A DNA stretch of 40,257 nucleotides. Origin: Gemmatimonadota bacterium (GTDB taxonomy: Bacteria; Latescibacterota; UBA2968; UBA8231). Position numbers and translations under genes: made by a program. Below are positions 1 through 40,257 of the stretch, in pieces. The stretch spans positions 1 through 40,257 of the forward strand of contig PATE01000125.1 of assembly GCA_002712305.1 (NCBI GenBank), written 5' to 3'. Each line of letters begins with the position of its first letter. Within the stretch, counting starts at the first letter, position 1. A model generated the notes under the pieces. It made no database searches. It was not told the origin of the DNA and saw only the letters and a program-made list of their open reading frames with translations.

Positions 1-781
1 AGGTCGTAGTGCCCACAGCGGCGGCCAAATGGGCAGGGCCAGAATCATTACCGATCAGACACCGAATGTCGGCCAGCAGGCTGGCCAGCACCACCGGATC
101 CACGGCACTGATCGATGGCCATCGATCGGTAAGTGTTCGGAAGAGGTGTCCATTCTCAGACTCGGCAGGTCCCCGCAGCAGAACGACGGCGTGTCCGTGC
201 CTTTCGAGCCACTCTCCAAGCTGCAGAAAGTGTCCAGGTGGCCAGCACTTGCTGACCCCGCCGCTTCCGGCATGGATCACGACCACGTCCTCTGGATCTA
301 TGTTCGCATCGGCCCAGTGTTGCCGAGCGGCGGACCGTTCCTCGTCCGTCGGAGAGAATCTGGGGACACGGTCCTCAGGTCGAGCTGGGTCACACGGGGG
401 AAGCGGCGCCAGCAGGTGGTCGATCGTATGCTCGCGTCGTTCCGGGTTGGGACGCGGATCCCAGGTGACGATCTGGCCGGAGCAGGCCGCTTGTAGGCGG
501 TGGGCTAATCGTTCAGACGAGGAGGAATAGGCCACGATCCGGTCCGCCGATCTCAGCCAATCGGGGATCGAAGGTTCAGCCCCGTACAGCGCCGCCCCGA
601 TGGGGCCGTCCGCATCGACGAGATGGTCGGGCCTGGCCAGGCGACCTCGGTCCGGATGACCGATCCAGTACATGGGCTGGTCCGGACAAAGGCGGCGCAA
701 TCGGGCCACAGCCGGAAGCGTCAGCACATGGTCTCCAAGGGCGCCACCGCGCAGCACCACGAGGGCTGGGTTCAGCGCCAT
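1..781 (-). CDS. Glycosyltransferase family 9 (heptosyltransferase-like), partial
   Basis: The reading frame is open for 260 codons from ATG at 781 and runs off the left edge, so the C-terminus is missing. The N-terminus (residues 8-23, VVLRGGALGDHVLTLP) matches the nucleotide-fold opening of GT9 enzymes. Residues 243-257 (IGNDSGPAHLAAAVG) are the family's sugar-nucleotide-binding signature, and VVVIHAGSGG lies near residue 187. Members transfer heptose or related sugars from ADP-activated donors onto LPS core at the inner face of the cytoplasmic membrane. An ATG four bases upstream is in another frame and gives no recognisable protein. No clear Shine-Dalgarno precedes the start; instead a 7-bp hairpin (789-807) lies just upstream. 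The family is secure, the exact acceptor unknown. Confidence 0.88.
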   Translation of the reverse strand, partial: MALNPALVVLRGGALGDHVLTLPAVARLRRLCPDQPMYWIGHPDRGRLARPDHLVDADGPIGAALYGAEPSIPDWLRSADRIVAYSSSSERLAHRLQAACSGQIVTWDPRPNPERREHTIDHLLAPLPPCDPARPEDRVPRFSPTDEERSAARQHWADANIDPEDVVVIHAGSGGVSKCWPPGHFLQLGEWLERHGHAVVLLRGPAESENGHLFRTLTDRWPSISAVDPVVLASLLADIRCLIGNDSGPAHLAAAVGTTT

Positions 782-935: not shown

Positions 936-1556
936 ATGGCTGGTCTCATCGGCAAGAAACTGGGCATGACCCAGGTCTACAATGACAAGGAAGAACTCAT
1001 CCCCGTGACCGTTGTTGCGGCGGGTCCCTGTCCGGTCACCCAGGTGAAGACGGCGGAACGCGATGGCTATGCGGCCGTCCAGGTCGCCTTCGACGAGGTC
1101 CCTGAGCGCAAGGTGAACAAACCGATGGCAGGCCATCTCGCAAAGGCGAAGGTTTCACCTCACCGCCAGTTGAAGGAATTCCGCAACGAGGTCGACGGCA
1201 TCGACTACGAGATCGGTCAGGTCTTGGACGTGACCCAGTTCGAAATCGGTGACAAAGTCAAGGTGACGGGGCGGTCGAAGGGTAAGGGCTTCGCTGGTGT
1301 TGTGAAACGATATCACTTCCGTGGTAAGAATGCGACACACGGAACCCCGGATCGAGTTCGCCACGGTGGCTCCATCGGTCAGGGCACCGACCCCGGCAAG
1401 GTGTGGAAGGGGAAGAAGATGCCCGGACACATGGGCGCCCGTCGTGTGACCACGGGAAGTCTGCAGGTTGTGAGAATCGACGGCGAACGCAATCTACTTT
1501 TCCTCAAGGGCACCGTGCCAGGCTCTTCTGACGGGTACATCACCATCGTTAAGTAG
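936..1556 (+). CDS. rplC: 50S ribosomal protein L3
   Basis: Primary 23S rRNA-binding protein of the large subunit that reaches the peptidyl transferase centre. The 206 residues start MAGLIGKKLGMTQVY and include TGRSKGKGFAGVVKRYHFRG and a loop with GSIGQGTDPGKVWKGKKMPG, all L3 hallmarks. The length is normal for bacterial L3. ATG at 936 is preferred; a GTG at 924 would add four residues without family support. The residue at the position of E. coli Gln150 (methylated by PrmB) is Thr. The gene stands alone: a glycosyltransferase points away on the left, and a strong hairpin follows on the right. rplC normally lies second in the S10 operon, so this is either a relocated single gene or an extra copy; the window cannot tell which. 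Confidence 0.95.
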   Translation: MAGLIGKKLGMTQVYNDKEELIPVTVVAAGPCPVTQVKTAERDGYAAVQVAFDEVPERKVNKPMAGHLAKAKVSPHRQLKEFRNEVDGIDYEIGQVLDVTQFEIGDKVKVTGRSKGKGFAGVVKRYHFRGKNATHGTPDRVRHGGSIGQGTDPGKVWKGKKMPGHMGARRVTTGSLQVVRIDGERNLLFLKGTVPGSSDGYITIVK

Positions 1557-1601
1557 CCTGTTTCAAGGCGCCAAGCCTGGATCACCAACTTCCAGCGATC
1601 A

Positions 1602-1645
1602 CCAACCTCAAAGCGGGGCTCTTTCGAGCCCCGCTTTGAGGTTGG
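1602..1645. terminator. Perfect 20-bp hairpin between convergent rplC and HIT gene
   Basis: Bases 1602-1621 and 1626-1645 are exact reverse complements around a TTTC loop. The hairpin lies 45 bases after the rplC stop and 36 bases after the stop of the convergent HIT gene, so it probably ends transcription from both sides. There is no U-tract on either strand. Confidence 0.75.
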
Positions 1646-1680: not shown

Positions 1681-2028
1681 TCAACCAGGTGGCCACTGTA
1701 GCTGCCGTCCCCCAAGTACATGGATGTGCAGATGGGGCACCTGCTGGCCACCATTGACTCCCGCATTGATCACACAACGATAACCGTCGTTGGCGATTCC
1801 CTCCTGTGCCGCCATTCTCTGCGCAACAACAAGCAGATGGCCCAGAAGCTGTTCGTCCTCAGAGGACGCAGTCTGGACGCCGACAATCGGTTTTCTTGGA
1901 ATCACCAGCATGTGAGTCGGTGCCTGCGGCGAGATATCCTTCAGGACGATGCAGTCGTCGTCCTGAAACAGAATCTCCCCCGGAATCTCGCCCTCCATGA
2001 TCTTTGTGAAAATACTTGCTTCGCTCAT
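1681..2028 (-). CDS. HIT-family nucleotide hydrolase (HinT-like)
   Basis: A 115-residue histidine-triad protein. The triad appears as HLHIH at residues 99-103, preceded by NAGVNGGQQVPH and followed by LGGRQLQWPPG, the canonical C-terminus of the HinT/PKCI group. The N-terminus (IFTKIMEGEIPGEILFQDD) is also typical. Relatives hydrolyse AMP-NH2 derivatives and aminoacyl adenylates in the cytoplasm, with the middle histidine as nucleophile. The start is ATG with GGGAG seven or eight bases upstream. It is divergent from the GT2 gene with only 25 bases between starts, so at least one promoter must lie inside the other gene. Confidence 0.93.
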   Translation of the reverse strand: MSEASIFTKIMEGEIPGEILFQDDDCIVLKDISPQAPTHMLVIPRKPIVGVQTASSEDEQLLGHLLVVAQRMAAQEGIANDGYRCVINAGVNGGQQVPHLHIHVLGGRQLQWPPG

Positions 2029-2053: not shown

Positions 2054-2815
2054 GTGAATCTGACGATTATCATCCCTGCCTACAACGAGGAACTCAGAGT
2101 CGTGAGCACGATAGATTCCGTGCGTCAGTTCCTCGACGATCGATCATGGACGTATGAGATCATCGTCGTCGACGACGGCTCGAAAGACGAAACGGCCCAA
2201 CGGGTTGAACAGGCCTGTACAACCCGCCAACATCTACGATTGGTCTGCGCAGAGAGCAATCAGGGAAAGGGTGCCGCTGTGCGCCTCGGTGTCGAACACG
2301 CCCATGGAGATATCGTCGGTTTCATCGATGCCGATGACAAGACTGATATCAGCGGTCTGGACGAGGTGTTTCGCCATTTGGATGATGGAGCCCAGATCGT
2401 AATCGGCGATCGAACCCTCGCCGACACCGCAATCCACGTGCAACGACGGGCCTATCGAGAACTGGGTTCGCGACTCTTCCGACGTTTGCTGCGATGGTGG
2501 ATGGGCCTGGGGGACTATCCGGACACCCAGTGCGGGTTCAAATTCTACCGAACCAACGTGTTGCGAGGACTCTACCAGAGAGCGCGCATCGACGGGTACA
2601 TGTTCGATGTGGAGTTGCTGGTCCTGGCTCATCAGGCACGCTATCGAATCGACCGCATCGGTGTGACCTGGCGCGACGATCCCGACAGCCGATTCCTACC
2701 GTTATCAGGTAGCTGGCGCAATATCCGTGAGCTGCTGCGTATCCGTCGGCTTCATGTGGATGAGTTGCCAGATCACGACCCATCGTCATTCGATTCGAGA
2801 CCTCCCACCAATTGA
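2054..2815 (+). CDS. Family 2 glycosyltransferase, dolichyl-phosphate sugar synthase-like
   Basis: A 253-residue GT-A fold protein. It opens with NLTIIIPAYNEE, has DDGS at 40-43, and the metal-binding motif DADD near 92-95. CGFKFYR and an RxxDPDSR segment follow, as in enzymes that move a sugar from a nucleotide donor to a polyprenyl phosphate. No membrane helices are visible, so it is the soluble catalytic type acting at the inner membrane face. The start is GTG with TAGG nine bases upstream; no earlier in-frame start is seen. The last 43 bases overlap the 3' end of the convergent MFS-HEAT gene. The donor sugar cannot be read from sequence. Confidence 0.88.
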   Translation: MNLTIIIPAYNEELRVVSTIDSVRQFLDDRSWTYEIIVVDDGSKDETAQRVEQACTTRQHLRLVCAESNQGKGAAVRLGVEHAHGDIVGFIDADDKTDISGLDEVFRHLDDGAQIVIGDRTLADTAIHVQRRAYRELGSRLFRRLLRWWMGLGDYPDTQCGFKFYRTNVLRGLYQRARIDGYMFDVELLVLAHQARYRIDRIGVTWRDDPDSRFLPLSGSWRNIRELLRIRRLHVDELPDHDPSSFDSRPPTN

Positions 2816-5100
2816 CTCAGGCGCTGTAGAGCAATGGCCACGAAGATCTCTCGTGCAGCCTCCAGGTCGAGTCTCGCCTCGCTGTCGAGAAAGTCTTCGA
2901 GGGCGAGGATCACGAGATAGATCGACAACACTTCATACGGGCGCCGACCGGTGGCCAGCAGTCCGTCCCGAATGATGCCGGCCACCTGTCGGGCCGCCTC
3001 CTCCAGCCATTCTAGATTGCCTGAGTCGAAAGCTCGCCGTAGACGATCGAAGGTCTCATCGAGTCCCTCCCGGGTCGTGGCTTCGATTCCCGCGCTTCGC
3101 TGCAGTGTCGTGCCTGCGCGTCGGACGATGCGTAGCAACGTGGAAGAGCGACGATCCTCATCCACCGACAGCAAGCGGTAGAATTCGCTATCCTCGCCGA
3201 TGGCAACGCAGACACTGTTGAGTAGCTGCAGACGCACGGCAGGGGATCGGAAGTCATCGAGGTGAATCAAGGTTGCCTTGATGACTCGATGATCGTTCAT
3301 GTGCGCTAGCACATCCACGAGGGTGGGAAAGGTGACCGGATCGAAGCTGCCGCCGAAGTGCCAGAACAGCAGTTCCTGAATTTCGGCGCCGCCAATCTCA
3401 CTCAATCCACGAATGGCGCTGATGCGCACGCGGGGATCTTCGTCATCGAGGGCCTCGATGAGTGGATCCACCCCACCTGCGTGACCCAACCGGCCGAGGG
3501 CTTCGGCAGCCTCAGAACGGATGTCGGACGAGCCGTCGACGAGTTCGCGCACGAGCGATTCCGTCGCCGCTTCTGAACCCGTGTCGCCCAGCGCCCGTGC
3601 CGCACTGCGACGCACCATGGGGCTTGCGTCGGCCAAAGCCTGGATCAACTGCTCGATCGCCAGTGGACTGCCCGAGCGTCCGAGGCCAAGGGCCGCGCGT
3701 GCTCGATGCTCCTGCCGGGAGGCGACATTGTAAACCGCCGTGTTATAGGTGTAGCTGAGCAGGTTGCCGCGGGCAAGGTGGGACAGAAGGTGACGGGACG
3801 TAATCGAACTACGATCGCTGACACGACTCAAGAGGAAGAGCGCTGGAACTCGACAGACGGCACTGATGAGAAAGATAATCTGCAGATGTCCGATGCTCAG
3901 ACCAGGCATCTGGAGGGTCACGCCGTCGAGACACGCGACAAGAACCGCACTCGCGGCCGGACCCAGAGCGCCGAGCAGATTCACCGAAGCCGACCAAGTT
4001 GCCAAGTAGTGTGGGCGCTGCGACCCGGCGGGCACCAGCCCGTAGAGAAGGGGAGTCACGGCGACGAGAATACCAGAGAAAATCAGCCCACTTACACACA
4101 ATGCCAGGGGGACGAACCAGAAGAACTCGGGTGTGTTGAAAACCCAGATGATGGGGATGAACGTGGCGGGAACCATCAAAATCTGCAGGACGGGTTTGCT
4201 GCCAAATCGGTCGACGAGCCCTGCCCAGAAACGATACCCGGCGATGCTGGTCACCATGAACAGGGCGTTGAAGATGGCGATCCACGTATAAGAGATCCCC
4301 AACTGCTCGAGCATGAACACACTGTACAGAGGTCCGCCGATGCCAATGGCGAAGGTCCAGGATCCGTAGAAAAGAACGGCACGACGAAAGTTTCTGTCTC
4401 GAAGTGGTTCGATGAGTCCGCCGGAACGACGTTCTGGCGCCGTTTCATCCTCCGCCGGTGGTGGCGGATGGGGTGCGCGAGCCAGAGCCAGATATCCGAG
4501 AAGTCCGAAGCCTGCTCCCAGGACGAAGACGATGTCGAACCCGGTCTGTTTGTTGGCTGCGTCGAAGCCATCGATGAATCGTGCTACCACGAACCCGGCG
4601 ACCATGGCGGCGATGGTGCTGAGGATCGTCTGCCGAGATGTAAAACGGGCCCTGATGTTCTCTGGAACGGTGTTCGCAACCCACGTGTTGTAGAAGGGTG
4701 CTATCACGTGGCCACACAGCAAGCCCGCGGCGACAAGAAACGCCAGGGCCTCGAGTCTCAGATGTGCGGCGAACAGGAGAGGGATGAGGGGCAGTGCGTT
4801 GCGCAAAAGGATTTCAGCGAAGCCGACGCCTACGACAAGGCGTTTTCGATGCCGTAGCCTCGACGCAGAAGCCGAAGCCAGGATCTGTACAGCCGCCAGC
4901 AGGTAGGCAACCGAGGTCAGCAGAGCGATGTAGGATTCGTCTGCTCCCAGATGAAGCAGATAACCGGTGAAAACGGCTGTGCCGATCCCGATCGTTTGAC
5001 CCCAAATACCCCACAAACCACTGGCGGTAATGAATCCGCGCATGGCGCGGTTCACCTCGCCCCGAGTCAGGCTCTGGCCGTCTTCATCTTCAGCGGACAT
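2773..5100 (-). CDS. MFS transporter fused to HEAT repeats
   Basis: 775 residues. Residues about 25-440 form a major-facilitator-type membrane domain: two blocks of hydrophobic helices separated by a charged loop rich in Pro and Glu near 210-230. Residues about 470-620 carry HEAT/PBS-lyase-type helical repeats (for example RAALGLGRSGSPLAIEQLIQ and RRSAARALGDTGSEAATESL). The last 150 residues are helical and charged without recognised motifs. The topology suggests a transporter with a cytoplasmic protein-binding scaffold. The substrate is unknown. It overlaps the GT2 gene tail-to-tail by 43 bases and is followed upstream by the dehydrogenase gene on the same strand, 115 bases away. No ribosome-binding site is obvious. 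The broken transporter at 12520-15789 has a similar membrane-plus-HEAT design but belongs to another family. Confidence 0.82.
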   Translation of the reverse strand: MSAEDEDGQSLTRGEVNRAMRGFITASGLWGIWGQTIGIGTAVFTGYLLHLGADESYIALLTSVAYLLAAVQILASASASRLRHRKRLVVGVGFAEILLRNALPLIPLLFAAHLRLEALAFLVAAGLLCGHVIAPFYNTWVANTVPENIRARFTSRQTILSTIAAMVAGFVVARFIDGFDAANKQTGFDIVFVLGAGFGLLGYLALARAPHPPPPAEDETAPERRSGGLIEPLRDRNFRRAVLFYGSWTFAIGIGGPLYSVFMLEQLGISYTWIAIFNALFMVTSIAGYRFWAGLVDRFGSKPVLQILMVPATFIPIIWVFNTPEFFWFVPLALCVSGLIFSGILVAVTPLLYGLVPAGSQRPHYLATWSASVNLLGALGPAASAVLVACLDGVTLQMPGLSIGHLQIIFLISAVCRVPALFLLSRVSDRSSITSRHLLSHLARGNLLSYTYNTAVYNVASRQEHRARAALGLGRSGSPLAIEQLIQALADASPMVRRSAARALGDTGSEAATESLVRELVDGSSDIRSEAAEALGRLGHAGGVDPLIEALDDEDPRVRISAIRGLSEIGGAEIQELLFWHFGGSFDPVTFPTLVDVLAHMNDHRVIKATLIHLDDFRSPAVRLQLLNSVCVAIGEDSEFYRLLSVDEDRRSSTLLRIVRRAGTTLQRSAGIEATTREGLDETFDRLRRAFDSGNLEWLEEAARQVAGIIRDGLLATGRRPYEVLSIYLVILALEDFLDSEARLDLEAAREIFVAIALQRLSQLVGGLESNDDGS

Positions 5101-7443: not shown

Positions 7444-7965
7444 ATCAGCAAACAGCAACAGTCGTTTACACGGATCAATGACTCGATTCGAGTGCCGCAG
7501 GTGCGTCTCATCGACGCCGAGGGCAATCAGGTTGGTGTCATCGACACGAGCAAGGCCATGGAGTTGGCCGACACCGCAGAATTAGATCTCGTCGAAGTCG
7601 CCCCGGAAGCCCGGCCTCCCGTGTGCCGGATCATGGACTTCGGCAAATACAGCTTCGACAAAGAGAAAAAGGCGAAGGAAGCTCGAAAGAAGGGACAGAG
7701 TCTGCAGATGAAGACGGTACGGATTCGTACCGCAAACATTTCAGCTCACGACCTCGAGTATCGCCTCGGACACATCCGCGAATTTATCGGCGCTGGCCAT
7801 CGCGTGAAGATCAGCATGCGCTTCTTCGGCAGAATGATGGCCTACAAAGATCGAGGACGAGAGGTCCTTGAGGATGTTGCCACGCAGATGAAGGATGTGG
7901 CGATCGTGGATCAGATGCCACAGATGGAAGGCCGTGAGATGTCGATGATTCTTCGACCTCAGTAG
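7444..7965 (+). CDS. infC: Translation initiation factor IF-3 with ATC start
   Basis: IF-3 binds the 30S subunit, blocks premature joining of 50S and proofreads the start codon. The 173 residues include the N-domain (RINDSIRVPQVRLIDAEGNQ), the linker rich in Lys, and the C-domain motifs KISMRFFGRMMAYKDRG and EGREMSMILRP. The start is read as ATC at 7444, eight bases after GGAGGG (7430-7435). No ATG, GTG or TTG gives a better N-terminus; the open frame upstream to 7357 encodes nothing IF-3-like and would ignore this site. Rare AUU/AUC starts are a known autoregulatory device of infC, because IF-3 itself discriminates against them. The usual partners rpmI and rplT do not follow; a terminator does. 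Confidence 0.93.
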   Translation: MSKQQQSFTRINDSIRVPQVRLIDAEGNQVGVIDTSKAMELADTAELDLVEVAPEARPPVCRIMDFGKYSFDKEKKAKEARKKGQSLQMKTVRIRTANISAHDLEYRLGHIREFIGAGHRVKISMRFFGRMMAYKDRGREVLEDVATQMKDVAIVDQMPQMEGREMSMILRPQ

Positions 7966-12519: not shown

Positions 12520-15500
12520 TTAGCGCCGGCGACCTTTGTCTCTGAGATGCAGACAGAGGGTGTGGATAAGACCTCTGAGCACGGTCGAGTGGGTGGCCAT
12601 GAGTTCGTAGAGTGCATCTCGATCGAGTGCAAGAAGCTGGGCGTCGTCGACGGCGGTGACCGAGGCGGAGTGGGGCTCCGGATCGAGGGTGGTCAGCTCT
12701 CCAAAGAGCTCTCCCGGTCCTAGTTCGACGAAGGTGTGCGTCTCATCGTGCACGCGGACCTTCCCGTCGGCCACGATGTACATCGTTCGTCCGAGGGCGC
12801 CTTTTTCGTACACAGGTGCCTCTGCAGCCACATCGAGTTGCTCGAGATAACCGGCAAGATCAGCCAGCACTTCTTCGGGTACTTCGGCGAAGATGCTGAC
12901 CGAGCGCAGGATCATCACCTTCTCGACCGTGAGGAACATGAGCGACTCCTTGTGGTCCTGAGTAGTTGTTTGTGTGAGCTGTTCTATCCATGCATCAGGA
13001 AAGGTGTCCCGTCGCGACGCGATCGATTCGTGCCAACCTTCGGGGGTTATTCGGCTCAAGGCCCAGGCGGCAGTCTGACGCACGAGTAGTTCGTCATCAT
13101 CGAGCGCTTCTACGACGACATCGGTCATCCCCTCCACGAGCAGCTTGTCGGTTGCGTACAGCGCGCACGCACGGATCCAGGGCTCGAGGCGGTGGCCACC
13201 CGGGACAATCATCAGTGCGAGACGCTGATCTCGTGCCATGCTCTGTTGTGGAAAATCTTCGTTCAACGACCGGCCCAGGGAAGTCTCGTTTCCTTCGAAC
13301 AGGCGCAGCAGGTGTCGGCGTGCGTCTCCGGTCAGGGTTGTTTCCAGAACCTCGAGGGCGTAGGCTCGCTGGTCGGCACTGGTGGCGAGTCTTTCGTCGG
13401 CGCGTTTGACATTCGAGCCACTGATGAAGGCGGACAGCAGCAGGCAGCGATGGCGGATCCCAGACAGCCGATGTCGAAGGCTGCGTTGCAGGGGCGCACA
13501 CTCGGAACCGCCCAAGTCGTTCAGTGAGGCCAGCACCCACACGGCGTCCGACAGTTCCTGCCACAGGATATCGTCGATATTGGCTCGATGGGCTTGGGAC
13601 CCTTTGAAGTCGGCCCGATCCAGCGCGTCGATGATGGCCGAGCGCAACCGACGGTCCTCCGAATCCATCCGCAGTTGGAGTGCTTCTACCGCGGCCTCAC
13701 CGCCGAGTTGCCCGCAGATCGCAGCGATTCGTGATCGAACATGGACAGGACGTTCCTGATCCGACAGGGCATGGATCAACGTGGGCAATACCTGTTCGCC
13801 ACTAGGCGACCAGGGCAGACGCGGCAGCGCGATGCAGGCCGATGTGATCGAGGCTGGCCAGGACATCCGGCCACAATCGAGGCGAAGAGATCTTGCCCGC
13901 TGCCACCAAGGCCTCCGTCCGCACCGTCGCATCTGGATCGGTCAGCAAGGGTCTCAGGTGCCGGTAGAATCCTCGATTTCCCACATCGCCTAGGACATGG
14001 GCGGTACGCACACGTTCCGTGGGATCTGCCGATCGTTCCAGGGCGAGCAAGCGTTCGCCCGCGACAAGGATTCCATCGACGCCCCCTGTACGCAGCAAAC
14101 CGATCATCGCCGCTTCTGCAATCAAGGGAGAGTCGGCATTGATGAATGGGCTCAGATCGTCGACGGCATCCGCTTCGGCGCTGGCGGCCAGCGCCAACAG
14201 CAGCGCTGTCTGCACTCTGGGCTCTTCCTCGGTGTCAATCTGGGCGCGGATGGCGCGTTCCAATTCAGGTGTGTCGCTCAGTGCCAGCCGCCGAGCGACC
14301 TCGCGTCGAACCTCAGGATGGGGATGGGTGATGAGCCCCTCGGACAGTTCGCTCACGGATACGTCGAAACGAGTTGTGAGCAGGTCGAAGGAGTACAGAA
14401 CCTCGTGGGGACGTTGGCTGGTCAGACGCGAGCGCAGGACCTGCTCCATTTCCGAATCGTCGCGACTTAGCGATACACCTTCCAGGCGCCGATGCTGAAG
14501 AGCTTCGGGCAGCGCCCGGCGATAGCCACGATCCACCCAGGAAGAAACGAACTTCCACCCGATCAGCAGAGCCAGGGTCAACAGCACCAGCGGAAGCGGA
14601 CCATCTCCCACCGAGGCGGCCAGCAACACCAACAAGCCGGCAGCGGCGCCCGACGCGATCGGTCCCACGACGCCGTCGACGGCCACCTGCGTTGCCAGGC
14701 GTTAATTGGATCGAAGAGGCTGATACAGCACGAGGAATGCGGGAGCCGTCAACGCGCCAAGCAGGACCAGGTCAGTCACCTTCGCGGCCACGGCAAACCA
14801 GAACAGAACACTCGTATTTATTGTCGTGGCCAGCACAACAAGACTTCCGGTCACACAAAGGGTGAGTGCCTGGCGGCGCGGGCGCATGGCCCGCGCAATC
14901 CCGTAGCGGCTGATGACCGGACCCGTGACGAGGGTCAACAAGAGAAAGGTCAAACTCTGGGCCACGCCGAGGAGGATACCAAACAACTGCGCCAGATCAT
15001 CTTGCCCGTGGATCTGATCCCGGGCCTGGTTCAGGAAGGCGAAATCGATGAGGCGATGACTCGCGACGCCGACCAGTGAAAGAACAAAGAGGGATCGAAC
15101 ATAGGGATGCCGACCCAGAGCGATGACCCCCGTGTCGGTCTGCGGGTCGTCCTCTTCTTCGCCCCGTCGTAAATGTTTCGCATGACCCCGCGCACAATCG
15201 CCTGTAGCACGACGATGGCGCCACCGATTCCTGCTGCCGACAGCAGCAGAAGATTCTGCGTGCCTACGATGGCTACGATCATCGGCGTGGCAAGTCCCCC
15301 ACCACAGTAGCGAGCAACTCCCCTGATCCGATCAGACCGAAGAGTCGTTTTCCCTGGCGCACGTTGAAGACCTGCCCCGCAATTCCCCACAGCTCCACAC
15401 TCAGAAGCGCTTTGCTCACGGCTTGAAAACCGAGCAGCAGAAAGGCCGGCCATGCAGCCTGAGTCAGGTCGAGGCCAAGCGCAATAACAGAAGGCAGCTG

Positions 15501-25800: not shown

Positions 25801-25994
25801 TTGTACACGTTGCCATAGCTGACGGTTTCTGGCTCACGAACGGGTTAAAGAGAAGTCTGTAATGGATGGGAAGACAACAAGTTAGAGGTATCTATGGGCG
25901 CGGTTCACGTTTTCGAACCATGTGGCAACCTCTCGTAGGCATGGAAGTTGCGTTGCTTCTGCGAAACATCTCAACGCACGCCAAGGTAACACCC

Positions 25995-27118: not shown

Positions 27119-27194
27119 AGGCCTGTAGCTCAATTGGTAGAGCACCGGTCTCCAAAACCGGCGGTTGCAGGTTCAAGTCCTGCCGGGCCTGCCA
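27119..27194 (+). tRNA. tRNA-Trp (anticodon CCA), CCA tail encoded
   Basis: Acceptor AGGCCTG pairs with CGGGCCT. The anticodon stem CCGGT/ACCGG encloses CTCCAAA with anticodon CCA, and the T-arm has GCAGGTTCAAGTCCTGC. Discriminator G and encoded CCA end at 27194. It lies 41 bases before secE, as in many bacteria. Confidence 0.97.
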
Positions 27195-27235
27195 CTTTCG
27201 CAGGGTTCACACGTTGGAGAGGTTGTCAGCGGGGG

Positions 27236-27424
27236 ATGTGGGAGAAGCTCAAGACGTTTCTCATTGATGTACGTGGCGAGTTTGGCCGGGTAATCTGGCC
27301 AACGCGCGACGAACTCGTCAATTCGACGACGGTCGTCATCGTATTTTCCATCGCCTTCGCCATTTTCATCGGACTGTTCGACCTGGTTCTGTCGTTCGTC
27401 CGGTCGATTATCCTCTCCCTGTAA
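27236..27424 (+). CDS. secE: Preprotein translocase subunit SecE
   Basis: A 62-residue, single-span SecE. The amphipathic N-terminal helix (FLIDVRGEFGRVIWPTRDEL) is followed by one transmembrane segment (about 28-58). It clamps SecY in the inner-membrane translocon. This is the short form common outside enteric bacteria. ATG at 27236 is chosen; an upstream frame to 27134 runs through tRNA-Trp. GGAGAGG lies about 15 bases upstream, rather far, and GGGGG is directly adjacent. nusG follows after 36 bases. Confidence 0.95.
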   Translation: MWEKLKTFLIDVRGEFGRVIWPTRDELVNSTTVVIVFSIAFAIFIGLFDLVLSFVRSIILSL

Positions 27425-27460
27425 CCGTTGCGTAGCGACGCAGAATAGGGCGATTCGTTC

Positions 27461-28009
27461 ATGGCCGTTCACTGGTACGCGTTACACACGTATTCCGGGC
27501 ACGAGAACAAGGTCAATACCTATCTCGAGACGCTGATTCAGCAAGGCGCCGCAGACGGTGCCATTGTGAAGGTCGTCGTGCCGACGGAGGAAGTGGTGGA
27601 AATGCGAGGCGGCAAGAAGACGGTGTCGAAACGCCGCTTTCTGCCAAGCTACGTCCTGGTCGAGATGGACATAACCAAGGACGCGTGGCACGTGGTGACC
27701 AATGTGCCAGGCGTGACGAATTTCGTCGGTCCTGCTCGCAAGCCGGCACCGCTGACGCAGGAAGAGGTCGATCACATTCTGGGCCACGCCGATCGGCGCA
27801 AGTCTCAGGAGGTCGAGGACATTCCCTATATCGTCGGTGACCAGGTGAAGGTTAATGACGGAGCCTTCAAGGACTTCATCGGTACGGTTCAGGAAGTCAT
27901 CCCCGAAAAGCGCAGGCTCAAGATCATGGTCAGCATTTTTGGCCGCGGAACACCCGTCGAGCTTGATGTGCTCCAGGTCGAGGTCGTCGACGAGACAGTG
28001 GCGAGCTGA
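27461..28009 (+). CDS. nusG: Transcription elongation/antitermination factor NusG
   Basis: 182 residues. The NGN domain opens with HWYALHTYSGHENKV and includes RFLPSYVLVEMD and NVPGVTNFVG. The C-terminal KOW domain starts near 128 (GDQVKVNDGAFKDFIGTVQEV). NusG binds the RNA polymerase clamp and links it to Rho or to S10. AGGGCG lies some ten bases before the ATG. The gene is in the standard secE-nusG-rplK order and probably co-transcribed. Confidence 0.98.
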   Translation: MAVHWYALHTYSGHENKVNTYLETLIQQGAADGAIVKVVVPTEEVVEMRGGKKTVSKRRFLPSYVLVEMDITKDAWHVVTNVPGVTNFVGPARKPAPLTQEEVDHILGHADRRKSQEVEDIPYIVGDQVKVNDGAFKDFIGTVQEVIPEKRRLKIMVSIFGRGTPVELDVLQVEVVDETVAS

Positions 28010-28093
28010 GCCGGGTGAAATCCTTGTCCATCGAGTTGTGGGCGTACCGAGATAGCAACGACATGCAAGCAAGAAGAGGACGGTAGAGTAGCG

Positions 28094-28519
28094 ATGGCAA
28101 AGAAGGAACTGGCGCAGATCAAGTTGCAGATTCCCGCCGGTCAGGCCAGCCCGACCCCGCCCGTAGGTCCGGCTCTTGGTCAGCATGGCGTGAACATCAT
28201 GGAGTTCTGCAAGGCCTTTAACGCCACGACGCAGGACAAGGGGGGGCTCATTATCCCCGTGGTGATCACAGTCTATGCCGACCGCAGCTTCACCTACATC
28301 ACCAAGACGCCACCGGCGGCCGTATTGCTGAAGAAGGCCGCGAAGATCGAAAAGGGATCGGGTGTGCCGAATCGGGACAAGGTTGGAACGGTGACGCAGG
28401 CACAATTGCGTGAGATTGCCGAGTCCAAGATGGAAGACCTCAACGCCGATGACCTTGATGCGGCTGCTCGGATGATTGCCGGCACGGCTCGTAGTATGGG
28501 TCTGGTCGTCGAGGGATAG
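28094..28519 (+). CDS. rplK: 50S ribosomal protein L11
   Basis: 141 residues, the normal length. The N-domain has the Pro-rich loop [27 protein letters not shown], split here by no insertion, and the C-domain binds the GTPase-associated region of 23S rRNA ([17 protein letters not shown]). The N-terminus [15 protein letters not shown] is typical, including lysines that PrmA methylates in E. coli. It begins 84 bases after nusG; in many bacteria this spacer carries the L1 repressor site. rplA follows after 26 bases. Confidence 0.98.
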
Positions 28520-28545
28520 AGACAGGAACAACAGAGAGAATCGAC

Positions 28546-29247
28546 ATGGGAAAGCGTGGTAAGAAATACGCACAGTCCGTCGAGTCCTACGAGCGCAGTG
28601 AGCCGCAGACCCTCGAGGATGCCGTCAAGATCCTTAAGGAGATGCCCGTGCGGAAGTTCGACGAGACCGTGGAGCTCAACTTCTATCTCGGCATCGATGG
28701 TCGGCAGGCAGACCAGGCTCTGCGCGGAACGGTGATGCTACCCAACGGCACGGGCAAGGAAGTGCGTATTGTCGTGATCACACAGGGTGAATTGGTCGCC
28801 CAAGCCGAAGAAGCCGGTGCAGATCATGTTGGCGCCGCCGACTTGATCGCTAAGATCGAAGGCGGCTGGCTCGACTTCGATCTCGTGATCTCCTCACCGG
28901 ACATGATGGGCCAGGTTGGAAAACTCGGCAGGGTCCTGGGTCCTCGGGGCCTGATGCCGAACCCGAAGACCGGTACCGTGACACGCGATGTGGGACAGGC
29001 TGTCACCGAAGCACGCGCAGGTCGGGTCGAGTATCGGGCCGACAATAAATCTGGCAACAATGCACAGGCACCCATCGGCAAGCTCTCCTTCACCGAAGAG
29101 GCACTCGTTGAGAATGCCCAGGCACTGTCCAACGCTATTCTACGCGCTAAACCTGCGTCGACGAAGGGCTCATTCATCCGCAAACTGATTCTGTCTTCCA
29201 CCATGGGGCCGGGCATCCGTATCGATCCTGGCGCTCTGGCTGCGTAA
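28546..29247 (+). CDS. rplA: 50S ribosomal protein L1
   Basis: 233 residues, normal for bacteria. [15 protein letters not shown] opens it, and the hallmark segment [20 protein letters not shown] lies near 125-145. The C-terminal RIDPGALAA is also typical. L1 forms the mobile stalk that releases deacylated tRNA from the E site, and it commonly represses its own operon by binding a leader that mimics its rRNA site. rplJ starts only 24 bases later. Confidence 0.98.
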
Positions 29248-29271
29248 GACTCCTTTCTGAAGAGCACTGAT

Positions 29272-29805
29272 ATGCCCACAGCACAAAAGGTCGATGCTGT
29301 TTCGGTCTTGTCTGAGAAAATGACGAGCGCCGGTGCGATCTTCCTCGCCGATTTCAATGGAATCGACGTCGCCTCGGTCACCGAGTTGCGTCGTTCGTTG
29401 CGCAAGGCCGGCATCGAGTATCAAGTCGTTAAGAATCGACTGGCAAAACTCGCCGCCGCCGATGCGGGACTCGAGGTCTTGAAGGACCATTTCGAAGGGC
29501 CCACTGCAATGGCCTTCGCCGCCGACGATCCTGTCGAGCCGGCGAAACTGCTGCAGAAGTTTATCGATGACGGCGGCAAGCTGGCCATCAAGACCGGGCT
29601 CGTCGACGGTCAGGTCCTCACGCCCGAAGCGGTCAGCCAATTGGCGAAGCTGCCTTCACGCGAGGAACTGATCGGCAAGCTCCTCGGTTCGGTCCAATCG
29701 CCCCTGTTTGGGCTGGCTTCAGTGCTCAATGGACTAATGCGCAATCTCGTCGGCGTGGTCAGCGCCATCGAAAAAGAGAAGAGTGGAGCCGGCGGCGACG
29801 AGTAG
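29272..29805 (+). CDS. rplJ: 50S ribosomal protein L10
   Basis: 177 residues. The N-terminal domain binds rRNA ([24 protein letters not shown], with KNRLAKLAA), and the C-terminal helix near 150-175 carries the L12 dimers. It anchors the stalk that recruits translation GTPases. The start ATG lies 24 bases after rplA, leaving no room for the long L10(L12)4-binding leader seen before rplJ in many bacteria. rplL follows after 70 bases. Confidence 0.97.
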
Positions 29806-29875
29806 TCGCTGATCCGATTTCCTATTTGAAAACAACCAGAAACACGACCAGAACGATCAAACGGAGGACTCAGAA

Positions 29876-30283
29876 ATGAGCGAAGAGGAAGTCAGCGTCA
29901 GCCCCAAGGTGGGCGAGATCATCGAGACCATCTCTGGTCTCACAGTTCTTGAATTGGCTGAGTTGGTCAAGGCCCTCGAAGAGAAGTTTGGTGTTTCCGC
30001 TGCAGCGCCAGTGATGATGGCCGGTGCTGCGCCCGCAGGGGATGGTGACGGTGGCGAAGCTGTCGTTGAGAAGGATGAGTTCGACGTGGTGCTGACTGGT
30101 GTAGGCGACAAGAAGATCCAGGTGATCAAAATCGTCCGTGAAATTACCAGTCTAGGACTGAAGGAAGCGAAGGCTCTCGTCGACGAGGCACCGAATCCGG
30201 TAAAGGAAGCTGTCTCGAAGGCCGAGGCCGAGGAAATCCAGGGCAAGTTGACCGAGGCGGGTGCCACGGTCGAGATCAAGTAG
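29876..30283 (+). CDS. rplL: 50S ribosomal protein L7/L12
   Basis: 135 residues, slightly longer than the usual 120-130. The N-terminal dimerisation helices ([20 protein letters not shown]) are followed by an Ala/Gly hinge enriched in Gly and Asp ([11 protein letters not shown]). The conserved C-domain has [20 protein letters not shown], which contacts IF-2, EF-Tu and EF-G. GGAGG lies nine bases before the ATG. It is followed by a 312-base spacer before rpoB that contains a large hairpin. Confidence 0.98.
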
Positions 30284-30595
30284 TCAAACAACCATTCGAA
30301 CACACGGACAGACGTCGTTTTTCGCAGACGCCATTGCATGGGGTGGTGGCGCTGCGCTCCAAACCCACAACGACGACCCGACCGCAACGATCATCGAATA
30401 CCACGCTCGTTAGCGAAAGCTCATGGAAGACCGGGGGCGGTGAGCCCTCAGGTGTTTCCGTGAGCTTTCACCATATCCCGGTGCAGCGTCCTGTATCCAC
30501 ATGATGCGCATCGCGATTGACGTTTCAGTTCAAATATCGCGCGGATGTCTCCGTGGCGTAGTCCACGGGACTCGGGTGACCAAAGGAGCCAGACC
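30284..30595 (+). promoter_or_regulatory. rplL-rpoB spacer with long hairpin
   Basis: GAAAGCTCATGGAA (30415-30428) pairs with TTCCGTGAGCTTTC (30456-30469), 14 pairs including one G-U. Inside, GGGGGC can pair with GCCCTC. No T-tract follows, so it suits partial attenuation or RNase III processing, as known for the E. coli rplL-rpoB spacer. AAAGGAG at 30582-30588 serves rpoB. The rest shows nothing coding. Confidence 0.6.
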
Positions 30596-34417
<3,822 letters not shown>

Positions 34418-34483
34418 CCGGAGCTCAATCGGATCAGGAACCGTCAGGTTCCCGACCAAAACGCGACCACCAAGGGGTAGCAC

Positions 34484-37400
34484 GTGCTTAAGACTCAGAA
34501 CTCCAGAAAGCCAACGGACTTTGATTCCATCCGGATCCAGCTGGCCTCACCCGACACGATCCGTTCGTGGTCACACGGCGAGGTAACGAAGCCGGAGACG
34601 ATTAACTATCGCTCCTTCAAGCCGGAGCGGGACGGTCTATTCTGCGAGCGCACCTTCGGTCCCGTGAAGGATTGGAATTGCCACTGCGGCAAATACAAGG
34701 GGATCCGATATCGCGGCGTCGTCTGTGACCGATGCGGTGTCGAGGTCACTCAGGCGAAGGTGCGTCGTGAGCGCCTCGGCCACATCGAACTGGCCGTTCC
34801 CGTCTCTCACATCTGGTATTTCAAGTCCTTGCCGTCACGAATCGGCGCGCTACTCGATATCTCGATGCGCAATCTTGAGCGCGTCCTCTACTACGAGTCC
34901 TATGTCGTGTCCGATCCCAAGGATATCGAAGGGCTCGAAAAGATGTCGTTGCTCACCGAAGAGGAGTTGATGGAACATCGGGAGCAAGGACATGATCCGG
35001 TTGTCGGGATGGGTGCTCCCGCCGTGCGTGACCTGCTCGCTTCGATCGATATCGAGGAGCTGTCCGCTGAGTTGCGCGCTCGTGTGCGCATGGAGACCTC
35101 TATTCAACGGAAGCAAGAGGCCTTGAAGCGACTCAAGGTGGTGGAGGCCTTCCGGCAATCTGAGAATCGTCCCAATTGGATGATCCTCGAAGTGATTCCG
35201 GTCATCCCACCCGATCTGCGTCCCTTGGTCCCCCTTGAGGGTGGTCGATTCGCCACGTCAGATCTCAACGATCTGTATCGGCGTGTCATCAATCGCAACA
35301 ATCGCCTCAAGAAGCTGATCAGCATCAAGGCTCCCGAGGTGATTCTGCGCAACGAAAAGCGGATGCTGCAGGAAGCCGTCGATGCGCTGTTTGACAACGG
35401 ACGTCGTTCACGTGCCGTCCGTGGCGACGGCAACCGCTCGCTGAAATCTCTGTCCGATCTGCTGAAGGGTAAGCAGGGCCGTTTCCGTCAGAACCTGCTC
35501 GGCAAACGCGTCGATTACTCCGGTCGTTCGGTTATCGTCGTCGGCCCGGATCTAAAGCTGCACCAATGCGGACTCCCTAAGAGCATGGCTCTTGAGCTGT
35601 TCAAGCCCTTTGTCATTCGGAAGCTCGAAGAAAAGGGTCTGGTGCAGACCGTGAAGAGCGCCAAGAAGCTCGTCGAGCGCGAACGTGCAGAGGTCTGGGA
35701 CATTCTCGAAGAGATCATCGAAGATCACTGCGTCCTGCTAAACCGCGCCCCAACTCTCCATCGACTGGGAATCCAGGCCTTCCAGCCCATTCTGGTCGAA
35801 GGCAAGGCGATTCAGTTGCACCCCTTGGTCTGTGCCGCCTTCAACGCCGACTTTGATGGCGATCAGATGGCCGTTCACGTGCCTCTGTCTTTCGAAGCGC
35901 AGATCGAGGCTCGTCTGCTGATGCTGTCGTCGCAGAATCTGCTCAAGCCCGCAGACGGCGAACCGGTGATCATGATGGATCCGAAGGACATCGTCCTCGG
36001 TGCCTACTTCTTGACGAAGGTCAAGTTTTCAGACGCTGAAAAGACGGACCGACGCTTCTCCAGCACCGCCGAAGCCAGAGCCGCCTACGAGTCCGGCAAA
36101 CTCACTCTGCATCAGCCGGTGAAGGTTCGTATCGCCGGTGAAATCGTCGATACGACGGCTGGTCGAATCATTTTCAACGATGTCCTGCCCGATAGTATGG
36201 AGTTCATCAACCGAAATATCGACAAGGCCGACATCAAGCGAATTGCCGGTGAAGTACATCGCCACCTCGGCAATCGCCAGACGGCCGAAGCCGTCGATCG
36301 CATGAAGTCTCTCGGGTATCAGTGGGCGACGTTGTCGGGTGTGAGCGTCGCCGTCGATGACGTAGTCGTCCCGAAGCAGAAGGACGAGATCATCGGTGAG
36401 GCCATGGGCGAGGTCGACAAGGTGAAGGATCAGTACGCCAACGGCATCATCACCGACGGCGAACGCTACAACAAGATCATCGACATCTGGACCCACGCCA
36501 CCTCAGGTGTCTCTCGCGCCGTTCAACGCGCACTCGAGGAAGCCGAAGAGGGTTTCAATTCGGTGTACGTGATGAAGGACTCCGGAGCTCGTGGTTCGGA
36601 AGACCAGGTGAAGCAGCTCGGCGGCATGCGCGGACTGATGAACAAGCCGCAGAAGAAGTTGACGGGCGCCGTCGGAGAGATCATCGAGACGCCGATCATC
36701 GCCTCTTTCAAAGAGGGACTGTCGGTTCTCGAATACTTCATTTCCACACACGGCGCTCGCAAGGGACTCGCAGACACGGCTCTGAAGACGGCCGAGGCAG
36801 GTTATCTGACCCGGCGCATGGTTGATGTTGCCCAAGACGTTGTGATCAGCGAACTGGATTGCGGCACCCGCCAGGGGATCTGGATCGGCGCCCTGAAGGA
36901 TGGGGAAGAGATTGTCGAGCCTCTGGCAGAGCGCATCGTCGGGCGCGTGCTGCTCGAAGACGCGGTCGATCAAGATGAGAAGGTCGTGATCAAGGGGGGC
37001 ACCCTGCTTGAGGAGGCCGATGCGAATGCCATCGCGTCGGCAGGATTCGAGCAAGTGCGAATCCGTTCAACACTTTCCTGCGAATCGCAACGCGGCGTGT
37101 GCGCCTATTGCTATGGCCGGAATCTGGCTTCGCAGCGCATCGTCAACATCGGCGAAGCCGTGGGTGTGATCGCCGCCCAGAGCATCGGTGAGCCGGGCAC
37201 TCAGTTGACGCTACGCACCTTCCACATCGGCGGCACGGCAAGTCGTATCGCCGAGCAGTCGCAGATCACCGCTCGTCGTGACGGCACCGCAGAACTGGTT
37301 AACGTCATCACCGTTGACCATCCCGAGTTGGGTCGCGTGGTGACGGGTCGCAACGGCGAACTTCAGTTGCTCGATGAACAGAATCGCGTCCGCCACCGTA

Positions 37401-38578
37401 TGGCGGTTCCCTACGGATCCGTACTCAAAGTCGAGGATGCGGACGAGGTCGATGCATCCGATGTGATGTATGAGTGGGATCCCTACAGCAACCCGATCGT
37501 CACCGATCGCCCAGGAACGGTCAAGTTCATCGATATCATCGATGACGTGACTATGCGGTCCGAGTTTGACGAAAGCACAGGTATGAGTGCCCGTGTCATC
37601 GTCGAACAGCGAGACCGGAGTCTGAGCCCGGCCATCGAGGTTGAGGGACCCGATGGCAAGCGCTCCTACATCATTCCGACCGGTGCTCGACTGCTGATCG
37701 ACGATGGTGCGCAGATCAGCCCCGGGACGACGCTGGTGAAGATCCCGCGCGAGCGTAGCAAGACACGTGATATCACAGGCGGTCTGCCTCGTGTTGCTGA
37801 ATTGTTCGAGGCTCGACGTCCAAAGGAACCGGCAGTGATCTCCGAAATCGACGGCGAGGTCAGCTTCGGCGGCCTGGTGCGCGGCAACCGAGAGGTCTTC
37901 GTGACGTCCGCTGACGGGGAAGAGCGCAAGTATCTGGTACCCTACGGCAAGCACCTCAGAGTGCATGAGGGAGACCAGGTCGTGGCCGGTGAACGTCTGT
38001 CCGAAGGCGCCGTGAATCCTCACGACATCCTTCAGGTACAGGGGGTTCACAAGGTGCAGGAATACCTGGTCAACGAGATCCAGGACGTCTATCGCCTGCA
38101 GGCTGTGGAGATCAATGACAAGCACATCGAAGTGATCGTGCGTCAGATGCTGCAGAAGGTGAAGATTCTCGATCCGGGTGACACTAACTTCCTCGAGGGG
38201 GAAGAGGTCGACAAGATCCGTTTCAATCGAGAAAACGAGAAGGTCATCGGCGAAGGCGGCGATCCAGCGACCTGCCAACCGATTCTGCTCGGCATCACTC
38301 GAGCGTCCCTGCGAACGGACAGCTTCATCTCTGCCGCCTCCTTCCAGGAGACAACGAGAGTGCTCACCGAAGCTGCCGTGCAGGGCAAGGTGGACCATCT
38401 GCGTGGCCTGAAGGAGAACGTGATCATCGGTCGCCTGATCCCTGCTGGGACCGGTTCGGGGCTCTACAGACAGGTTCGGTACGACGACCTGGCACCGGAG
38501 ACCGATTCGGGCAATGGCAGCAACGGAGACCAGTTGCCCGACTACGACGCGTCCACGGAGGCTGTGGTCGGAGAATAG
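34484..38578 (+). CDS. rpoC: RNA polymerase beta' subunit
   Basis: 1364 residues. The N-terminal zinc site is at Cys66, Cys68, Cys81 and Cys84. The catalytic NADFDGD is at 454-460 and holds the Mg-binding aspartates. The trigger-loop region includes [21 protein letters not shown], and a second zinc site contains [11 protein letters not shown] from 866. No large insertion interrupts the conserved regions. The start is GTG at 34484 with AAGGGG six bases upstream. Several long reverse-strand open frames inside it are codon-bias shadows. A nested terminator follows the stop. Confidence 0.98.
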
Positions 38579-38579
38579 A

Positions 38580-38625
38580 CCGCTACTCGCTACGGCGAGT
38601 CACCTCGCTTTTTCGCGGGTAGCGG
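38580..38625 (+). terminator. Nested terminator after rpoC
   Basis: Inner hairpin GCGAG-TCAC-CTCGC (38595-38608) is followed by TTTTT. It is enclosed by an outer stem CCGCTACTCGC (38580-38590) and GCGGGTAGCGG (38615-38625). The two stems could form in turn, giving termination and then 3'-end protection if read through. It begins two bases after the rpoC stop. Confidence 0.75.
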
Positions 38626-38922
38626 CCCAATGCTGAAGCACGAGATCAGGGGTTGATTTTGTGCTTCAGTACGTGGCTTTGGCTAGCCGATGATGTGGCA
38701 TTGGCTAGCATTTGAAACGGTCTGTGACAGAGGCAGTTAAGCTTGTCACAATCGGTCCGCCTGCTGTTGACGATTTATGAAATTGTATTTAGCTTTTGAG
38801 ATTATCGTATTTCGCGCTACGCGCGGTTGTGGCGGGGCAGAAACCCAGCTACAACCGCGTGTGTCTGCGAGCTAAGTATTGCCTGCGTTTTCTCACGCAC
38901 AAAGCCAGATGGAGTCGGGTTC
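38626..38922 (+). promoter_or_regulatory. rpsL leader: repeats, inverted repeats and probable promoter
   Basis: This AT-richer gap holds, in order: CTGAAGCAC/GTGCTTCAG (38633-38641, 38661-38669); a direct repeat GTGGCTTTGGCTAGC (38673-38687) and its one-mismatch copy (38695-38709), 22 bases apart; TGTGACA/TGTCACA (38723-38729, 38744-38750); and a possible promoter TTGACG (38767-38772), 17 bases, TAGCTT (38790-38795). A 12-pair hairpin (38822-38833 with 38848-38859, GGG/CCC inside) and TGCGT/ACGCA (38884-38899) follow. They suggest an operator region and a structured leader for the rpsL-rpsG-fusA operon. Confidence 0.5.
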
Positions 38923-39294
38923 GTGCCGACAATCAGTCAGCTGATTCGCAAGGGTCGTCAGAAGTCCAAGAAGCGCACCGATTCGCCGGCCTTGCTGGGT
39001 TGTCCACAGCGCCGAGGGGTCTGCACGCGAGTCTACACGACGACGCCGAAGAAGCCGAATTCGGCCTTGCGGAAGATGGCTCGCGTGCGTCTGACGACGG
39101 GCCAGGAAGTCACCGCCTACATCCCTGGCGAGGGCAACAATCTGCAGGAACACTCCATCGTCCTGGTGCGCGGTGGTCGCGTGAAGGATGTCCCTGGAGT
39201 TCGCTATCACATCATCCGCGGCGTCCTCGATGCCAGCGGCGTCGCCGAGCGCAAGCAGGGCCGTTCAAAATACGGCGCTCGACGTGCTCAATAG
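38923..39294 (+). CDS. rpsL: 30S ribosomal protein S12
   Basis: 123 residues, the usual length. [20 protein letters not shown] and [11 protein letters not shown] are conserved decoding-centre segments. The lysines at the two classical streptomycin positions (in TPKKPNSA and in RVKDVPG) are retained, so sensitivity is predicted at this protein. The start is GTG at 38923 with GGAG eight bases upstream; the frame upstream to 38827 lies in the leader. It is first in an operon with rpsG and fusA. Confidence 0.98.
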
Positions 39295-39316
39295 ATCCCG
39301 AGAGAGCAAGTAATCC

Positions 39317-39787
39317 ATGTCGCGCAGAAGACGAGCCGTCAAGCGTCCGATCGTTCCCGATCCGAAGTTCAACAACGCCCTGGCGGCTCGATTCATTAAC
39401 TGCATGATGAAGGGAGGCAAGAAGAGCGTTTCAGAGCGCACCTTCTACTCCGCCATCGACATGGTTACCGAGCGATCCGATCAGCAGGGTCTCGACATCT
39501 TCCTGAAGGCCGTCGAGAACTGCAAGCCCATGGTGATCACGAAGTCTCGCCGTGTCGGCTCCCAGACCCTGCAGATACCCCTTGAAGTTCGACCCGAAGA
39601 ACGCACGACTCGTGCCATCAAGTGGATCATTCGCTTCGCCAGAGAGCGCTCCGAGCGCACGATGGCTGATCGCCTGGCAAACGAGTTGATCGCCGCCGCC
39701 AATGGTGAAGGTGGGGCAGTGCGTGCACGTGACGAAGTGCATCGTATGGCTGATGCCAACAAGGCATTCGCCCACTACCGCTTCTAA
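39317..39787 (+). CDS. rpsG: 30S ribosomal protein S7
   Basis: 156 residues, standard for bacteria. SRRRRAVKRPIVPDPKFNN opens it, and the C-terminus MADANKAFAHYRF is typical. S7 nucleates assembly of the 30S head and lies at the E-site mRNA exit. The spacer to rpsL is 22 bases with GAGAG before the ATG. In E. coli S7 represses the str operon through the S12-S7 spacer; here that spacer is too short for the same element. Confidence 0.98.
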   Translation: MSRRRRAVKRPIVPDPKFNNALAARFINCMMKGGKKSVSERTFYSAIDMVTERSDQQGLDIFLKAVENCKPMVITKSRRVGSQTLQIPLEVRPEERTTRAIKWIIRFARERSERTMADRLANELIAAANGEGGAVRARDEVHRMADANKAFAHYRF

Positions 39788-39839
39788 CCCTAGAAATCCC
39801 CCACTAGTTTCGCACCACTCCGGATAGGACGTATCAGAG

Positions 39840-40257
39840 TTGGCCAGACAGCATAGCATCGAGAATACGAGGAATATCGGTATCGCCGCCCACATCGACG
39901 CGGGCAAGACGACGACGACCGAGCGGATCCTCTATTACACGGGCCGATTGCACCGGATGGGCGAAGTCCATGATGGCAATGCCACCATGGATTGGATGGA
40001 GCAGGAGCGTGAGCGGGGCATCACCATCACTTCCGCTGCCACTGCCTGCGAATGGGGTGATCACCGTATCAACATTATCGACACTCCCGGCCATGTCGAC
40101 TTTACAGCCGAGGTCGAGAGATCGCTTCGCGTTCTCGATGGGGCGGTTGGCGTCTTCTGTGCCGTGGGCGGCGTTGAGCCACAGTCCGAGACCGTCTGGC
40201 GGCAAGCAGACCGTTACGAAGTGCCCCGAATCGCATTCGTCAACAAGATGGATCGAA
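39840..40257 (+). CDS. fusA: Elongation factor G, 5' part
   Basis: 139 complete codons; the gene runs off the right edge. The GTPase motifs are present: G1 [10 protein letters not shown] (16-25), G2 within [11 protein letters not shown]3 DTPGHVDF and G4 NKMD at the end. EF-G drives translocation and, with RRF, ribosome recycling. The start is TTG at 39840 ([18 protein letters not shown]), with AGGA ten bases upstream. No better ATG is near. It follows rpsG by 52 bases. Confidence 0.96.

What the first reader, a model, noticed from the sequence alone, without database searches (positions are those of the whole stretch)
936..1645. rplC stands alone, away from the S10 operon
L3 is encoded as a single gene with its own end hairpin, flanked by unrelated genes. 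In most bacteria rplC follows rpsJ and precedes rplD. Relocation would uncouple L3 from S10 operon control; a second copy would be equally unusual. The residue equivalent to E. coli Gln150 is Thr.
Basis: partly seen in the sequence, partly recalled or inferred. Interest (0 to 1): 0.52.

Follow-up and report, generated by a model that had tools for sequence, protein, structure and literature searches.

The report
Ribosomal protein L3 gene moved house
In one family of uncultured bacteria the gene for ribosomal protein L3 has left the ribosomal operon where nearly all bacteria keep it and stands alone tens of kilobases upstream, a real and inherited rearrangement rather than an assembly error.

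Summary
The finding is real. rplC (window 936-1556 +, 206 aa, TIGR03625 268.6 bits) is the only L3 gene found in its genome. The S10 operon lies on another contig and reads tuf-rpsJ-[8 bp]-rplD-rplW-rplB..., with no rplC. It is a trait of one family of Candidatus Latescibacterota. Of 25 family genomes, 23 have rpsJ directly followed by rplD; two cannot be scored. In all 20 where rplC was found it sits at one conserved site, with a convergent HIT gene behind it. Of 39 other genomes of the phylum, 36 keep rplC in front of rplD and 3 cannot be scored. A large same-genus contig and two single-contig genomes show the same order, so a chimera is excluded. One genome of another phylum (G104) also lacks rplC between rpsJ and rplD. 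Vertical relocation is favoured; replacement by a foreign copy is not excluded (L3 AU p 0.25-0.62). Thr at the 'Gln150' position is ordinary. The family has also moved infC out of infC-rpmI-rplT. Loss of single genes from this cluster is a known kind of event; seven literature searches showed no report of it for rplC.

The parts
936..1556 (+). rplC, ribosomal protein L3 (206 aa), sole copy found in the genome, relocated
   Evidence: TIGR03625 268.6 bits; one PF00297 hit in the genome
782..935 (.). intergenic region between the divergent GT9 gene and rplC; should hold the rplC promoter
   Evidence: GT9 is divergent; no sigma-70-type match here, so the promoter is inferred from gene orientation, not seen
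1602..1645 (+). perfect 20-bp hairpin between convergent rplC and HIT genes, probable (bidirectional) transcription end
   Evidence: a strong hairpin plus T run stands at this place in 16 of 20 family loci, the window being one of the 20 and not among the 16
2..781 (-). glycosyltransferase family 9 gene, divergent neighbour
   Evidence: PF01075; directly upstream of rplC in 19 of 20 family loci, 3.2 kb away in the other
1681..2028 (-). HIT (histidine triad) protein, convergent neighbour
   Evidence: beside rplC in 20 of 20 family loci (19 plus the window)
2054..2815 (+). family-2 glycosyltransferase, second gene downstream
7444..7965 (+). infC (IF3), ATC start codon, also separated from rpmI-rplT in this family
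   Evidence: PF05198 and PF00707; start codon; rpmI-rplT-pheS on contig C4 without infC
27119..40257 (+). tRNA-Trp, secE-nusG-rplKAJL-rpoBC-rpsL-rpsG-fusA(start): the cluster that leads to tuf-rpsJ-rplD on contig C136
   Evidence: ORFs, tRNAs; fusA breaks off at the contig end and goes on at the end of C136. The join itself is inferred; gene names are read from the translations

Best explanation
In the common ancestor of one family of Candidatus Latescibacterota, rplC was copied or moved out of the S10 operon to a site between a GT9 gene and a HIT gene, upstream on the same strand. The operon copy was lost cleanly, so rpsJ and rplD now abut. Since then L3 has been made from a one-gene transcription unit with its own promoter and end hairpin, and L3 supply is matched to the other ribosomal proteins without a shared mRNA. 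Shown: single copy, clean rpsJ-rplD junction, one conserved site, gene orientations that exclude cotranscription with the neighbours. Inferred: promoter, termination, loss of any shared control, and descent of the gene from the family's own rplC rather than from a donor.
For: One L3 gene in the genome. In the own genome rpsJ and rplD are 8 bp apart. Family: rpsJ-rplD adjacent in 23 of 25 genomes, not scorable in 2 (G042 broken up, G060 no hit); rplC found in 20 of 25, always elsewhere; not found in 5 draft genomes of 75-87% completeness. Same site in 20 of 20 (plus the window; GT9). On six shared contigs rplC lies upstream of rpsJ on the same strand at about 31, 41, 45, 91, 113 and 120 kb (coordinates). 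Rest of the phylum: 36 of 39 with rplC in front of rplD, 3 not scorable because the contig ends there. Descent: mean L3 identity of the family to families f2, f3, f6 is 53%, against 46-49% to the other-phylum sets. A tree with the phylum held together is not rejected (p 0.622; p 0.346) and in the first set had the higher likelihood.
Against: Free L3 trees do not join the family with the rest of the phylum, while L4 trees do with 97/93 and 100/98 support. In the loop after the Gln150 position the family has Gly-Lys in 20 of 20, while the 20 other L3s of the phylum have Ser-Arg (19) or Ser-Lys (1). The best single match outside the phylum (58.2%) is a little above the best inside it but outside the family (56.9%). 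No promoter match was found. The window's own hairpin lacks a T run. The empty target site could not be found in sister families.
Confidence: 0.68

Rival explanations
1. Xenologous replacement: the family's ancestor took up a foreign rplC as a stand-alone gene at the GT9-HIT site, and the native copy in the S10 operon was then deleted.
For: Free L3 trees leave the family outside the phylum's core group (15 rows, 95/86) while L4 places it inside. The loop signature differs from every other sampled member of the phylum. [quoted passage not shown]
Against: No donor group appears: the family sits in an unresolved fork. AU tests do not reject the phylum (p 0.622 and 0.346) or the class (p 0.248) as one clade. 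Family f7, which keeps the normal gene order, falls outside the core too, so the L3 tree loses true members. Mean identity to f2, f3, f6 is higher than to any other sampled group.
Confidence: 0.26
2. Assembly or binning artefact: a chimeric contig near 860-1650, or a foreign contig binned with the genome.
For: The window is a whole contig of a 146-contig draft and rplC begins 936 bases from its end.
Against: Same local order in 19 further genomes, among them a 285,585-bp contig of the same genus that also carries rpsJ-rplD, and two single-contig genomes. The L3 tree puts the window's copy with its genus at 100/99.
Confidence: 0.01
3. The stand-alone gene is a second, divergent L3 and the operon copy is merely missing from a draft assembly.
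For: Completeness of the own genome is 90.9%.
Against: rpsJ and rplD are on one contig and 8 bp apart, so there is no gap for an operon copy to hide in. One L3 in each of the 20 family genomes that have it, including two held as a single contig.
Confidence: 0.01
4. Selected co-relocation: rplC and infC were both brought upstream of the secE-rpoBC-str-S10 cluster, which frees two control points of translation (L3 supply, IF3 supply) from their operons. This can be true together with either origin of the gene.
For: infC is apart from rplT in 23 of 23 scorable family genomes and next to it in 22 of 22 genomes of families f2-f4. infC lies within 9 kb downstream of rplC, same strand, in 7 genomes including the window.
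Against: A shared position can follow from chance or from a rearrangement hot spot. In genus g3 the two are tens of kb apart (G047, G050, G051). No expression data.
Confidence: 0.1

Closest known systems
[quoted passage not shown] PMC8046335, passages read)
   Same: One or two essential genes leave the operon cleanly, flanking genes stay joined, a copy elsewhere takes over.
   Different: rplC does not occur in that paper's text (0 occurrences); here the change marks a whole family of another phylum.
Ribosomal protein S4 (rpsD) outside the alpha operon (PMC3087516, passages read)
   Same: A core ribosomal protein gene stands outside its operon in large clades.
   Different: There the authors argue for horizontal transfer; here transfer is not shown.
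Canonical S10 operon rpsJ-rplC-rplD-rplW-rplB
   Same: The other genes read from the own operon are in the usual order.
   Different: rplC is missing and lies upstream, alone.
   Same: tuf-rpsJ-[19 bp]-rplD-rplW-rplB without rplC.

Membership tests
Bacterial ribosomal protein L3 (uL3, rplC) | Full-length match to the bacterial L3 model | tested here: met
   TIGR03625, residues 3-204, profile 1-201 of 202, 268.6 bits against cut-off 142.9
Bacterial ribosomal protein L3 (uL3, rplC) | Works in the ribosome | not testable with these tools
   Sole copy and conserved in 20 family genomes, so presumably essential; no experiment
S10 operon member | Lies between rpsJ and rplD on one strand | tested here: not met
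Gene translocated out of the S10-spc cluster (kind described in PMC8046335) | Single gene removed, operon otherwise intact, one copy elsewhere | tested here: met
   family-wide
Gene translocated out of the S10-spc cluster (kind described in PMC8046335) | Origin by intrachromosomal copy rather than long-distance transfer | tested here: inconclusive
   Trees and AU tests
Monocistronic transcription unit | Flanking genes oriented so that cotranscription is not possible | tested here: met
   HIT convergent in 20 of 20, GT9 divergent next door in 19 of 20
Monocistronic transcription unit | Own promoter and terminator | tested here: inconclusive
   No sigma-70-type match; hairpin plus T run strong in 16 of 20, weak in 1, not found in the window, G061 and G058

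The most novel reading that the evidence does not exclude
The family's ancestor broke two of the most conserved translation operons and put rplC and infC, as lone genes, in one neighbourhood upstream of the secE-rpoBC-str-S10 cluster. This replaced operon-level control of large-subunit assembly (L3) and of initiation (IF3) with separate control of each.
Probability: 0.12. Interest if true: 0.6.

Novelty: new variant of a known kind. Interest (0 to 1): 0.4.

Why it matters
The rpsJ-rplC-rplD order is among the most stable gene orders in bacteria: 69 of 69 and 53 of 54 loci of other phyla that I checked have rplC in front of rplD (three genomes are in both sets). L3 binds early in 50S assembly (recalled, not looked up), so a clade that makes L3 from its own transcript is a natural test of whether synthesis from the shared S10 mRNA is needed for balanced L3 supply. 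It is also a clean marker of the family, and a caution for pipelines that take S10-operon synteny for granted.

Tried and rejected
Chimera and missing-operon-copy readings were rejected (see rivals). Foreign origin of L3 was tested with two outgroup sets. The first was biased, because its outgroups were found with peptide patterns of this very L3; the second was drawn mainly by L4 from two other phyla. Neither decides. Rows left out of the second tree set: f10_G016, ten of the 20 family L3s, about every second locus of the two phyla, and 20 of the 28 first-set outgroups.

Empty target site: 15 regions around HIT genes in families f3 and f4 hold none of the family's neighbours apart from distant 2HADH matches, so the site before the move was not found. 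Rfam: nothing in the window besides three tRNAs and nothing in nine further loci. Some of my own queries were read in a wrong frame and gave nothing or nonsense: GT9 (redone), the infC survey (not redone), the window's fusA (corrected).

Full report
Observation. The gene at 936-1556 + encodes a complete bacterial L3 (TIGR03625, 268.6 bits). Upstream lies a divergent GT9 gene (2-781 -), downstream a convergent HIT gene (1681-2028 -) and a family-2 glycosyltransferase. Between rplC and HIT is a perfect 20-bp hairpin at 1602-1645 (z -7.75), without a T run.

The other side of the story. The window is the whole contig C125 of a 4.77-Mb, 146-contig genome, 90.9% complete. PF00297 finds one L3 and PF00573 one L4, on contig C136. 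C136 reads fusA(end)-tuf-rpsJ-rplD-rplW-rplB-rpsS-rplV-rpsC-... (gene names read from the translations). rpsJ ends 8 bases before rplD begins. There is no rplC and no gap in which it could hide. The window ends inside fusA and C136 ends inside fusA, so the two contigs are probably neighbours with a short gap; there is no exact end overlap of 11 bases or more. If so, rplC lies about 42 kb upstream of rpsJ on the same strand, which matches the 41 kb seen on one contig of the same-genus genome G059.

Family-wide trait. I searched the same 64 genomes of the phylum (own genome included) for L3, L4 and S10. Family f1 has 25 genomes. In 23, rpsJ and rplD stand side by side; in G042 the region is broken up and G060 has no hit. 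rplC is found in 20 of 25, always elsewhere, and once each; the five without a hit are drafts of 75-87% completeness. Six of the 20 have rplC and the S10 operon on one contig (G046, G047, G050, G051, G058, G059), and in all six rplC is upstream on the same strand at about 31-120 kb. Of the 39 genomes in families f2-f10, 36 have rplC directly in front of rplD; G003, G017 and G026 cannot be scored because the contig ends there. The phylum name comes from these titles and from the NCBI taxonomy.

One site. In 19 of 19 further family loci the HIT gene follows rplC in convergent orientation, as in the window (in G041 the contig ends within HIT). The GT9 gene is divergent directly before rplC in 19 of 20 loci including the window; in G042 it is 3.2 kb away. 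pyrK and pyrD lie further upstream in most loci where the contig reaches that far. So the move most simply happened once, before the family diversified, and rplC is not cotranscribed with either neighbour. A strong hairpin with a T run follows rplC in 16 of 20 loci, a weak one in G063, none by this test in the window, G061 and G058. A purine-rich ribosome-binding stretch precedes the ATG in 16 of 20, not in the window, G059, G060 or G063. No sigma-70-type promoter match was found, and no Rfam leader in any region scanned.

Other phyla. Of 80 named loci found with this L3, the 11 of the family have neither S10 nor L4 beside rplC. Of the other 69, L4 follows in 69 and S10 precedes in 68; the exception L071 begins within the gene. 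That set was picked by L3 similarity. A second set, picked by L4 from two other phyla, gave 54 loci from 56 genomes searched: rplC precedes rplD in 53. The exception is G104, where tuf-rpsJ-rplD-rplW-rplB run on without rplC. Its rplC was not located. Thus departure of rplC from the operon is rare but not unique.

Origin of the gene. With 68 L3 rows, the free tree leaves the family in an unresolved fork outside the rest of the phylum, while L4 joins it with the phylum at 97/93. Held together, the phylum's L3s gave a tree 7.26 log units better (p-AU 0.622). With the second outgroup set the family again falls outside a core of 15 rows (95/86), and so does family f7, which has normal gene order. 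The phylum as one clade costs 2.84 log units (p 0.346) and the class 5.11 (p 0.248); L4 gives the phylum 100/98 but the class only 62/31. Mean L3 identity to f2, f3 and f6 is 53%, to the other-phylum sets 46-49%; the best single match outside the phylum is 58.2%, the best inside it but outside the family 56.9%. Against vertical descent: 20 of 20 family L3s have Gly-Lys where the 20 other L3s of the phylum have Ser-Arg or Ser-Lys. I put vertical relocation at about 0.68 and foreign replacement at about 0.26.

The Gln150 remark. The position holds Thr in 20 of 20 family L3s, Ser (18) or Ala (2) in the other 20 of the phylum, and Gln in 4 of 28 outgroups. A residue other than Gln is the rule here. 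That E. coli Gln150 is methylated is recalled, not looked up.

A second displaced gene. infC (7444-7965 +, ATC start) has no rpmI-rplT behind it. On contig C4 rpmI-rplT-pheS stand without infC (rpmI and pheS named from the translation). In the 47 genomes of the class, infC and rplT are neighbours in 22 of 22 of families f2-f4 and in 0 of the 23 family-f1 genomes that have both. Seven family members have infC within 9 kb downstream of rplC (and the window).

Literature. PMC8046335 (passages) describes single-gene losses from this cluster (rplJL, rpmJ, rpsN, secY, rpsD) and does not mention rplC. [quoted passage not shown] PMC2481283 (passages) has rplC in the Leptospira locus. The searches (listings seen) showed no report of a relocated rplC or of this trait in Latescibacterota; the library holds open-licence papers only, and the survey by Coenye and Vandamme (2005), cited in PMC2837039, was not read.

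Noticed in passing
window 7444-7965 +; L282 (G000:C4): infC (IF3, ATC start) has left infC-rpmI-rplT in the whole family: apart from rplT in 23 of 23 scorable family genomes, adjacent in 22 of 22 genomes of families f2-f4.
   Followed up: partly
L281 (G104:C123), 276-1227: A genome of another phylum has rpsJ-rplD without rplC, presumably an independent case; its rplC was not located.
   Followed up: partly
L251 (G078) and L026/L233 (G064): rplC and rplD are about 450-750 bases further apart than usual, as if something lies between them.
   Followed up: no
G009:C160 and G009:C263: This family-f7 genome shows two S10-L3 starts, one with a partial L3; duplication or mixed strains.
   Followed up: no
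window 2773-5100 -, 12520-13932 -, 13802-14686 -: Three HEAT-repeat proteins, one fused to a major facilitator transporter and one to a cyclic-nucleotide-binding domain.
   Followed up: no
window 25866-26375 +: Small protein of repeated Cys/His units just before the tRNA-secE-nusG cluster, with only sub-cut-off Pfam hits.
   Followed up: no
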